A stretch of DNA of 64,000 nucleotides, taken from Nitzschia sp. pyKryTriq1 (Eukaryota > Bacillariophyta > Bacillariophyceae > Bacillariales > Bacillariaceae). Positions within the stretch are counted from its first letter, which is position 1, and each line of letters starts with the position of its first letter. This document shows positions 1 through 3,702 of the stretch, piece after piece. The notes under the pieces are model-generated. The model did no database searches and was not told where the DNA came from. It saw only the letters and a list, made by a program, of their open reading frames with translations. The DNA lies in the NCBI GenBank assembly GCA_956465555.1, contig OY101116.1:992001-1056000 (forward strand). Reading direction: 5' to 3'. The translations under genes were made by a program, and so were the position numbers.

Positions 1-410
1 GCCGTATTACTAACCTTAAACGTGTCACAGAGTTCCTCACCAGAGGCCGTACAGTCCACGTCGCCGATCAACACGGAGGATGAAGCTGCGTATTCATCTC
101 CCAGTTGGTCCCAAGCGGGCTTCATGGACTTACAGTGGCCTCACCTTCGAGATGTTATGGAGGGGTACGCGATAAAACGTGAGAAAAAGCTATGAAAAGG
201 TCGCCTCATCCTGGCATTGTACAGTACATTATCGAATACAGTACATTGAACATGATAGTTTCATACTTACCAAGGAGCCAGAAACTTGATGAAGGAATTC
301 TTTCCCGCCATCATGTCACTGTAGTTGTCAGAGGTGAGTTCGGTTGCCCCTCCACTGACTGGAGTCAGAGTGGACAACACCGCAAGGATGGTAAAAAGGG
401 ACTTGGTCAT
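1..410 (-). CDS. Protein disulfide isomerase-like protein, 5' end only; TGA at the first active-site position (candidate selenoprotein)
   Basis: An ER thiol-disulfide oxidoreductase, partial: it runs off the left edge. Exon 1 (271-410) encodes a signal peptide (MTKSLFTILAVLSTLTPVSG) and the start of a thioredoxin fold ending F-I-K-F-L-A-P-W. Intron 145-270 begins GTAAGT and ends AAG. Exon 2 (15-144) continues G-H-C-K-S-M-K-P-A-W-D-Q-L-G and D-V-D-C-T, and a new intron starts at 14 (GTTAGT). The only join that keeps the thioredoxin frame reads W-(TGA)-G-H-C, with TGA at 141-143 exactly where the first Cys of the C-G-H-C active site belongs. Sec-containing PDI-family proteins are known in algae such as Emiliania huxleyi, so selenocysteine is the natural reading. 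The SECIS element would lie outside the window. An in-frame ATG at 464 is possible, but 410 begins the signal peptide. Identity is sure; Sec decoding is inferred. Confidence 0.85.
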
Positions 411-1129: not shown

Positions 1130-3330
1130 TGTTCTAATACTCCCCTTAATGGCGGAAGTAGTTGTGTCTTCTTAGTTGCTATCAGTAGACGATCTTCCGG
1201 TAGCTTGTAAAAGTGCATCAGGCTTACGGAACATGTACTGATCAAGAAGGCGATGGAAGTCTGTTCCATTTAAGGGCTTGGTGCATACATCTGCTACATT
1301 GAGCTTGGTATCTATATGCCCAAAGGTCAAGTATCCGCTGGCAATTGCTTCGCGTACACGGTGGTAGTTGCACGCTTGATGTTTCTTCTTAAGCTGCGAA
1401 GAAGGCAAGGTGGTATTTACCACTACTGCTAGGTTATCGCCTACTATCATGGAAGTGTCTTCAACTGGGACACCAAGCATGCGGAGTTTGTAACGAAATT
1501 CAATCAGTATATCAACGGCCGTACGGGCTGCCACGATCTCTGATCCATAAGTGCAGGTCGAACATGTCGTACTTCGTGGGACACGACGATGAACCGTGAC
1601 GTCCGGTAAGTCTGCCTCTGCGGCATCATATTGATCCATCGAGTCGGCAATCTTCTTCTCTCGTTCTGCCGGACTCGGGCATATCTCCCCTCCATGTGAG
1701 GCCGTAGTACGGATAGGGGCTGTAGCGAATTGCGGGTCCCATTGGACGCGCTTGTTGCGGTTAAATGGGCGTACGACACTACGGGTAACGATTTTCTTAG
1801 TCTGGTCGTCGTAAATAAGGAACGTTAAGGCGTCTCCCACGTTGGAAGCGATTCCTACCCAGTGTCCGGGGCGTTCATTGGTACTCGGGAAAGATTTTTC
1901 ATGTCCAGCGTATAACACGGGTTCCCAAAAGGAGAACTGCAGGAATGCAGAGATGTCTGGGGTAATGCCGGTACGTTTTTGCTTTGGTGTCATATTTATA
2001 CGTTTATGCCAACAATGGTTATGGATATCCGCTAGGTACTTAATGGCAAAATACCACGCAGGGTCCGGTGCGCCATGTCGATCCATAAGTGTATGGGAGG
2101 ACATTTTCAACCACCGAATTGCGGAATTCTCTACGGGGTTCTGGTTCTGGTAGTAGTCTTCGGAGAAGGCGTCGCCAATGCGATATTTGCGTTGTATCTC
2201 AGTAACTCGTTTACTTCGCTCAGAATTAGCATTATCCCGTCGGAGAATTTTCATGGGTCCGTGTTCTCGTATGAAGTCTTCCAAAGTGTCGGGGAATTCG
2301 CTTTCCTGTTTGAACCCGTATACGTCAATTGCCTTCGAGGTCAAACCATAATAGATTTGGGCACCTGAGTAATTATCGTGAAGACTGGGGCAATTGGCAA
2401 ACATGGGATCGGTTGAGACCACTTCATCCAGGCGTGTACCATCCATCCATGGAGTGCGTGGCAGGAGGTGGCGGCGCATCGGGTAATTAATGACCATTCG
2501 GGCTAATTGGGTTGTCACGTCTAACGTCTTCTTAATGACCCGTGTCGGTCGCCAACCAAAGAACGGTTGAAGTTTCCCTGGATCGAGTTCTTCTGGGTGT
2601 GTCCTATGCCACGAACGAGTTGCGAAGGCGTAAGAAGGAGGCACATCTCCATCTCGAGTGAAGGTGAGAAAGGCGAGTTCTTGGTCGGTACACTTTACTA
2701 GGGGATCGAATTGGACGTTTAAATCCACAAAGTCGTCGTTATATGTTGGGTTGAACCTTTCCTTGCCTACTAGTTCGTCCCATGTGTTACAGTCAAGTAG
2801 CTTATCGACCATGGACTTGGGGTTTTCCGTGCCCTCCCCCTCTTGGCTAGCGACATCTACCCTGGCGGTTGTGCTATTTTGTGCGACTATTACGGGGGGA
2901 AGCTCTACGAAATTGGGATCCTTCCTATGTGCGTTGGCGCGATGGTTATAGGGCTTCCATGTAGAAGGGGCAGTAATTTCAAACACATCGTAGAGTGGTT
3001 CGCCATCAGGGGAGAAATCTTTCTCGGTGTCGATTGGGAGAATTTCAAAACCCATCATTGCTCCCCTATTCTCGAAAGGGATATGTACCCATTCGTTTAA
3101 GTCGAAACGTTGCATTCCATATCCGGTAGGTGTGCGAGCTCTATGGTATTTAGAGGTCGAATCGAGAATATAACCATGGTCTCGGATTTGGTACTCCGAT
3201 AAGAGGGTGACGCAGTTGTTCTCTAAATATGGGGCTTCGTTGACTTTTACACAGATGAAGGTTTGGAAGAAGTATGAAGCGCCAGGGTCGTGAACGGAAG
3301 TTTCATAGCATGAGGCAAAGGTAGATCTTT
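1130..3330 (-). mobile_element. Ty1/copia-type LTR retrotransposon fossil (broken)
   Basis: A pol-derived frame of about 650 codons runs on the minus strand from roughly 3115 to 1172. Its upstream half looks like the integrase side of a copia polyprotein (a conserved H-N-H-C-W-H-K-R-I-N-M-T-P-K stretch). Its downstream end carries a copia RNase H signature (G-S-E-I-V-A-A-R, D-N-L-A-V-V and K-L-N-V-A-D-V-C-T-K-P-L). A purine-rich tract near 1137-1150 could be the polypurine tract. I found no convincing pair of long terminal repeats, so the ends are approximate and age cannot be estimated from LTR divergence. The element is incomplete, with at least one break, and is treated as a fossil. Diatom genomes carry many copia lineages (CoDi groups). 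Confidence 0.8.
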
Positions 3331-3702
3331 TCTTCAGCCTAAAACAGTTCGACTCGATTGACTCTGTTGGACAGGTTCGACTGAAGTTTCGAGGTCAGGT
3401 GGACAGACTGCCTCGATTCCGATCTGAGATCTCCCGATCTAAACTCTGCACTCTGCCCCCAAAAACAATACATAAAATAATAACGACCATGTGACGAGCC
3501 AGGAGCCAGAGACCAAAGCAAAGAGCAAAAAGGATAGCGGACCGGGGACCAAGGACCAACAACAAAAAAGCGGCACACAACAAAAAAGGGTCAAAGGTCA
3601 AGGGAGGAACACTCGATCTCTTTCCAAAACGAACCCCCTCATAATTGCTATCAATCAAAGAAGGGTCCCTCTTCTTGCGAAGAAATTTGACGAGCAAATA
3701 AT
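3331..3702. other. Intergenic region between the copia fossil and the NUP50-like gene
   Basis: Presumed promoter and 5' leader of the nucleoporin gene. It contains AAAC/AAAG-rich sequence at about 3460-3640 and no supportable gene or RNA. Confidence 0.4.

What the first reader, a model, noticed from the sequence alone, without database searches (positions are those of the whole stretch)
15..410. PDI-like gene with TGA in place of the first active-site Cys codon: candidate selenoprotein
The sequence shows exon 1 ending L-A-P-W and exon 2 continuing G-H-C-K-S-M-K-P-A-W. The only GT-AG join that keeps this frame leaves TGA (141-143) exactly at the first Cys of C-G-H-C. A random stop is unlikely to fall on the one residue where Sec replaces Cys in redox proteins while the downstream thioredoxin fold is intact. 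Sec-containing PDI-type proteins are known in some algae; having Sec as the N-terminal active-site residue would lower the pKa and change redox potential.
Basis: partly seen in the sequence, partly recalled or inferred. Interest (0 to 1): 0.85.

Follow-up and report, generated by a model that had tools for sequence, protein, structure and literature searches.

The report
Algal disulfide isomerase gene carrying selenocysteine
A gene at the edge of the window makes a small protein-folding enzyme in which a rare selenium amino acid most likely replaces the key sulfur one; this kind of enzyme is already known from marine algae, so it is a real but not surprising find.

Summary
On the minus strand the gene has three exons (window 410-271, 144-15, and a third left of the window) and encodes 194 aa: signal-like N-terminus, one thioredoxin domain, helical-looking tail. 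An in-frame TGA sits at the first active-site Cys (LAPW-U-GHCK). All 25 single-intron GT/GC-AG joins that keep the frame, FIKF and GHCK retain it. The genome has tRNA-Sec (three genes), SepSecS, eEFSec, a SelD with TGA, three TGA glutathione peroxidases and a SelT-like TGA gene. Three further PDI-like genes carry TGA at the active site. One (L046) has the same U-GHC with the TGA inside an exon, beside a tandem Cys copy, and is under purifying selection after the TGA. A SECIS-like hairpin lies in the 3' UTR, its ATGA core 136 nt after the stop codon. It has two helices but an atypical apex, so it is a candidate, not a proven SECIS. The closest known protein is EhSEP2 of Emiliania huxleyi (one thioredoxin domain, UGHC, selenium-labelled in vivo); Thalassiosira pseudonana has two Sec PDIs. 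Verdict: very probably a genuine selenoprotein gene, a new member of a known kind. Extras: the Sec/Cys tandem pair, and a donor-like sequence overlapping the Sec codon.

The parts
271..410 (-). exon 1 of the Sec-PDI gene (ATG at 410-408; signal-like peptide, then ..NSFIKFLAPW)
   Evidence: protein match at C2:992267-992410
145..270 (-). intron 1, 126 nt, GTAAGT...GAAG, phase 2 in the Trp codon just before the Sec codon
   Evidence: no RNA evidence
15..144 (-). exon 2 (..[W]-U-GHCKSMKPAWDQLGDEYAASSSVLIGDVDCTASGEELCDTFK)
   Evidence: (C2:992006-992146, 1 TGA)
141..143 (-). in-frame TGA, proposed selenocysteine codon 48, at the first Cys of the CGHC active site
1..14 (-). start of intron 2 (85 nt in all, GTTAGT...TTTAAG); exon 3 with the stop TAA and the SECIS candidate lie further left, at C2:991615-991929 and about C2:991400-991486

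Best explanation
The gene encodes a single-thioredoxin-domain, protein disulfide isomerase-like selenoprotein of an alga (probably a diatom). Shown from sequence: the TGA at codon 48 replaces the first Cys codon of the CGHC motif, the reading frame after it is an intact thioredoxin fold, and the genome has Sec-decoding genes. Inferred: a 3' UTR SECIS element recruits the SECIS-binding protein and eEFSec with Sec-tRNA so that the UGA is read as Sec; the signal-like N-terminus sends the protein into the secretory pathway; Sec48 is the attacking residue that forms mixed selenylsulfides with substrate thiols, resolved by Cys51. Also inferred: the UGA has 126 nt of exon 2 after it before the last exon junction, so the mRNA could be lowered by nonsense-mediated decay when selenium is short, if this organism has that pathway.
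For: In-frame TGA exactly at the active-site Cys, not avoidable by single-intron splicing without losing the active site. Intact downstream thioredoxin frame (whole protein with Cys put for Sec). Three tRNA-Sec matches over the cut-off, 74-75 bits, anticodon TCA. SepSecS, eEFSec domain III, a SelD-family gene with TGA in ..KG-U-ACK... TGA in three of four glutathione peroxidase matches and in an Rdx-family, SelT-like gene at CAS-U. Paralogue L046: FIKFLAPW-U-GHC with the TGA inside an exon, tandem to Cys copy L047; after the TGA dN 0.037, dS 0.209. PDI-like L011 (U-GYC) and L052 (GUGUU). SECIS candidate: TAGGA/TCCTA helix, ATGA..TGAC core, GTCGTTG/CAACGAT helix; hits with AATGA and equal or better score in 5 of 2000 shuffles and 3 of 462 native windows. 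GAATGAC occurs in the first 600 nt after the stop in 6 of 9 TGA genes, 0 of 3 Cys paralogues and 15 of 537 other windows. Identity to L046 is similar before (14 of 23) and after (30 of 49) the Sec. EhSEP2 with UGHC is a known 75Se-labelled protein (passages of PMC6254913).
Against: The SECIS candidate is predicted to fold with a three-way apex instead of one long helix with an AA apical loop (textbook form recalled); its folding z-score is only -1.94, with 7 of 200 shuffles as stable. Rfam SECIS_1 does not report it, but reports nothing in this genome at E up to 10, hence neither the peroxidase nor the SelT-like gene. Without the AATGA condition, scores as high occur in 56 of 2000 shuffles and 9 of 462 native windows. 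My scan finds no element in 3 of 9 TGA genes and weak ones (40, 47 and 73 of 200 shuffles as good) in three more, and the L046 candidate folds poorly (z -0.24), so the scan is a weak instrument. GAATGAC was picked after looking at the UTRs, and its background windows are mixed DNA (coding, intergenic, some organelle), not 3' UTRs. SBP2 was not searched. No transcript or protein data; no ortholog from another species was compared.
Confidence: 0.92

Rival explanations
1. A recent nonsense mutation (pseudogene): the TGA truncates a former Cys-PDI.
For: TGT/TGC to TGA is one base change; the SECIS candidate is not textbook.
Against: The rest is intact: 146 open codons after the TGA, two introns with GT-AG ends, thioredoxin score E 3.3e-14 for that part alone. 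Three other PDI-like genes have TGA at the active site, and the genome has Sec-decoding genes. A SECIS-like element is present.
Confidence: 0.04
2. Gene model or assembly error: an unrecognised mini-exon, other splice site or sequencing error restores Cys.
For: No reads or transcripts are available; the TGA lies 1 nt from the exon junction; joins with two introns were not enumerated.
Against: No single-intron GT/GC-AG join gives a stop-free frame with the active site. The paralogue L046 has TGA in the same codon inside an exon.
Confidence: 0.03
3. TGA is reassigned or read through generally in this organism, not as Sec.
For: Several genes have in-frame TGA.
Against: 58 of 61 listed thioredoxin matches have no in-frame stop and both TGA cases fall on the active-site Cys. 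The other TGA genes seen belong to families known to hold selenoproteins. Normal termination at TGA elsewhere was not surveyed.
Confidence: 0.01

Closest known systems
EhSEP2 of Emiliania huxleyi (Sec-PDI; passages of PMC6254913 seen, the original JBC 2005 paper not seen)
   Same: one thioredoxin homology domain, UGHC motif with Sec at the first Cys, PDI-like
   Different: haptophyte, not the same group; 75Se labelling done there, none here; the two sequences were not aligned here
Sec-PDI homologues of Thalassiosira pseudonana (two) and algal PDI_a to PDI_d (PMC2375036, PMC7539508; passages seen)
   Same: PDI-like proteins with one Sec in algae, including a diatom
   Different: their sequences are in figures and supplements that I could not read, so the exact subfamily of this gene is open
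PDI_e with GUGUU motif (PMC7539508; passages seen)
   Same: this genome holds one (L052), whose C-terminal tail resembles that of the window protein (31% over residues 36-190)
   Different: three neighbouring Sec residues instead of one U-GHC
Human-type TXNDC5 and PDI thioredoxin domains (PDB 8eky, 8eoj)
   Same: same domain with an APWCGHC motif
   Different: Cys instead of Sec; several such domains per chain

Membership tests
eukaryotic selenoprotein gene | in-frame TGA aligned with Cys of homologues | tested here: met
eukaryotic selenoprotein gene | conserved coding sequence after the TGA | tested here: met
   identity before and after Sec; dN/dS only for the paralogue pair L046/L047
eukaryotic selenoprotein gene | SECIS element in the 3' UTR | tested here: inconclusive
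   AATGAC core with two helices but atypical apex, z -1.94, no Rfam hit
eukaryotic selenoprotein gene | Sec machinery in the genome | tested here: met
   tRNA-Sec, SepSecS, eEFSec, SelD; SBP2 and PSTK not searched
eukaryotic selenoprotein gene | selenium in the protein | not testable with these tools
   needs 75Se label or mass spectrometry
protein disulfide isomerase family | thioredoxin domain with xGHC active site | tested here: met
   PF00085 E 1.7e-22 with Cys put for Sec; TXNDC5 and PDI chains
protein disulfide isomerase family | ER signal peptide and, in many members, a KDEL-like tail | tested here: inconclusive
   by eye only: hydrophobic N-terminus; C-terminus LERV, no KDEL-like tail, whereas L046 and L047 end in KDEL; no signal-peptide program was run
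EhSEP2-like Sec-PDI | single thioredoxin domain with UGHC | tested here: met
   no direct alignment with EhSEP2

The most novel reading that the evidence does not exclude
In these genes the Trp-Sec-Gly codons (TGG TGA GGY) themselves look like a 5' splice donor (G|GTGAGG). In L046, use of this donor instead of the modelled one 12 nt downstream stays in frame and replaces W-U-G-H-C by a single C (..LAPCKKMKP..), giving a stop-free, selenium-independent isoform; in the window gene the intron sits exactly at this point. The Sec codon could thus double as a splice switch that lets the cell make a Sec enzyme or a one-Cys form according to selenium supply, and could explain the different intron positions around the active site.
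Probability: 0.05. Interest if true: 0.65.

Novelty: new member of a known kind. Interest (0 to 1): 0.3.

Why it matters
It adds a well supported Sec-PDI to a well assembled (20 contigs) algal genome in which Sec and Cys forms of the same enzyme also sit side by side (C1, L046/L047). Such a pair is a natural experiment for asking what Sec buys at a PDI active site. The window gene itself repeats a known theme.

Tried and rejected
Rfam SECIS_1 genome-wide and on the locus: no hit, but it also misses the other TGA genes, so treated as uninformative. Scan of viral contigs with the protein: one 24% relative, not used. The first energy-ranked SECIS search used wrongly placed stretches for the peroxidase loci and was redone from their stop codons; it gave several unlikely candidates, so a scored scan with shuffle and native controls was written. 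A covariance model from the genome's own SECIS candidates was considered and not built: few and variable elements. Structure prediction was not tried: the protein exists only after splicing and the tool asks for letters read from the DNA. Loci L010 and L012 were fetched and not studied. Organism: C20 looks like a plastid and C19 like a mitochondrion of stramenopile type, by frames read by eye; 'diatom' is likely but not proven. Papers: PMC7539508, PMC2375036 and PMC6254913 seen as passages; others as search listings only. The search for Sec codon plus alternative splicing listed three papers, not read.

Full report
What is there. The window is C2:992001-1056000 of a 40.65 Mb, 20-contig genome. 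The gene runs on the minus strand off the left edge. With the flanking DNA (L009 = C2:983001-993000) the model is: exon 1 window 410-271, intron 1 270-145, exon 2 144-15, intron 2 of 85 nt, exon 3 at C2:991615-991929 ending in TAA. It encodes 194 residues with one in-frame TGA at codon 48 (window 143-141): MTKSLFTILAVLSTLTPVSGG..FIKFLAPW-U-GHCKSMKPAW..FKVKGYPTILYF..LERV. With Cys put for Sec, Pfam PF00085 matches residues 24-124 (E 1.7e-22), and the best solved relatives are TXNDC5 and PDI chains, which have APWCGHC here.

Is the TGA unavoidable? I enumerated 322 single-intron GT/GC-AG joins between the ATG and the end of exon 2. Thirty keep the frame without a stop, but none of them keeps both FIKF and GHCK; 25 keep the frame, FIKF and GHCK, and all 25 retain the TGA. 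Of 61 listed thioredoxin matches in the genome, 58 have no stop, two have a TGA, both at the active-site Cys, and one has a TAG.

Does the organism decode Sec? By gene content, yes. There are three matches over the cut-off to tRNA-Sec (one on C5, two on C4 whose starts are 161 bp apart), confirmed by ARAGORN with anticodon TCA; SepSecS; eEFSec domain III in an 813-aa frame; and one SelD-family match with a TGA in ..DLKG-U-ACK... Three of four glutathione peroxidase matches have one TGA, in ..NVA(S/C)x-U-G.., and an Rdx-family, SelT-like gene reads CAS-U. That these are the usual Sec positions of those families is recalled, not looked up.

Relatives in the same genome. A search with the protein gave 27 matches, three of them its own exons. 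L046 (C1) reads FIKFLAPW-U-GHCKKMKPDW and ends in KDEL; its TGA lies inside exon 1, so splicing does not explain it away. Its neighbour L047, 1.7 kb upstream on the same strand, is the same protein with TGT; both are 217 aa. Between the two, dN is 0.037 and dS 0.209 after the TGA, which indicates purifying selection on that part. L052 (C5) carries G-U-G-U-U, the PDI_e motif described in 2020. L011 (C5) carries RVG-U-GYC. L043 and L048 have CGHS with Cys. The window gene is about as similar to L046 before the Sec (14 of 23) as after it (30 of 49).

SECIS. The nearest frame downstream is a convergent 174-aa open frame (L009 7611-8135; not checked as a gene). The best element in the 3' UTR has its ATGA core 136 nt after the stop codon (element about C2:991400-991486): TAGGA-CGA-ATGAC-GTCGTTG ... 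CAACGAT-TGAC-AGA-TCCTA. It scores 29 on my scale; 4 of 200 shuffles reach this. In a larger run 56 of 2000 shuffles do, 5 of 2000 with the AATGA core, and 9 and 3 of 462 native windows respectively. Other genes in the same scan: SelD 0 and SelT-like 1 of 200 shuffles as good, but L011 40, L046 47 and peroxidase L022 73 of 200, nothing found for L052 and peroxidases L023 and L024, and nothing in three Cys paralogues. GAATGAC occurs in 6 of 9 TGA-gene UTRs (600 nt each), 0 of 3 Cys UTRs and 15 of 537 windows of other fetched DNA; the motif was chosen after seeing the UTRs. The predicted apex is a three-way junction without the AA loop of textbook elements (recalled), z -1.94; the L046 candidate folds poorly on its own (z -0.24). 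Rfam SECIS_1 gives nothing here or anywhere in the genome. I therefore call it a good candidate only.

Mechanism. Most likely the UGA is read as Sec and the protein is a secretory-pathway thiol-disulfide oxidoreductase in which Sec48 attacks and Cys51 resolves. Location, redox role and any selenium-dependent mRNA decay are inferred.

Known or new? PMC6254913 (passages) describes EhSEP2 of E. huxleyi: one thioredoxin domain, UGHC, the most abundant selenoprotein found there by 75Se labelling. PMC2375036 (passages) lists two Sec PDIs in the diatom T. pseudonana. PMC7539508 (passages) reports 20-44 selenoprotein genes in diatoms and five PDI subfamilies. So this is a new member of a known kind. 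What I did not find described, in the passages read and in one search listing, is a Sec codon that overlaps a donor-like sequence; in L046 that donor would give an in-frame ..LAPCKKMKP.. form. Modelled intron positions around the active site differ: in the Trp codon here, in the second Cys codon in L046/L047, in the His codon in L043, all phase 2. These are side observations without RNA evidence.

Noticed in passing
L064 5169-7685 (C1:665169-667685), loci L046/L047: Tandem PDI pair, one with TGA (Sec) and one with TGT (Cys) in the same codon, both ending in KDEL; a natural Sec/Cys comparison.
   Followed up: partly
L052 (C5:1809358-1809864, minus): A PDI_e-type gene with three in-frame TGAs in a G-U-G-U-U motif and a tail like that of the window protein; my scan found no SECIS in 600 nt of 3' UTR.
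   Followed up: partly
L011 (C5:563593-563871, minus): A further thioredoxin-like protein with TGA in RVG-U-GYC, 317 aa, with a long SECIS-like hairpin after its stop (40 of 200 shuffles score as well).
   Followed up: partly
L046, exon 1 end: The Trp-Sec-Gly codons form a donor-like GGTGAGG; its use would keep the frame and remove W-U-G-H, leaving one Cys.
   Followed up: partly
L014/L015 (C4:2830576 and 2830737) and L013 (C5:2573652): Three tRNA-Sec genes, two of them in tandem, starts 161 bp apart.
   Followed up: no
C1 about 3.84-4.60 Mb and C3 about 2.70-3.46 Mb: Thioredoxin and MsrA matches recur in the same order near the right ends of C1 and C3; L036 and L037 are 94-97% identical in two aligned pieces. 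A duplicated chromosome arm or an assembly of two haplotypes.
   Followed up: partly
window 1172-3394, minus: A 740-aa frame that looks by eye like a Ty1/copia-type polyprotein, about 0.8 kb upstream of the Sec-PDI start codon.
   Followed up: no
C1:1879555-1879929; C9:1133957-1134166: An MsrA match with one TGA and one TAG and an Rdx-family match with three TGAs; could be selenoproteins, introns read through or pseudogenes.
   Followed up: no
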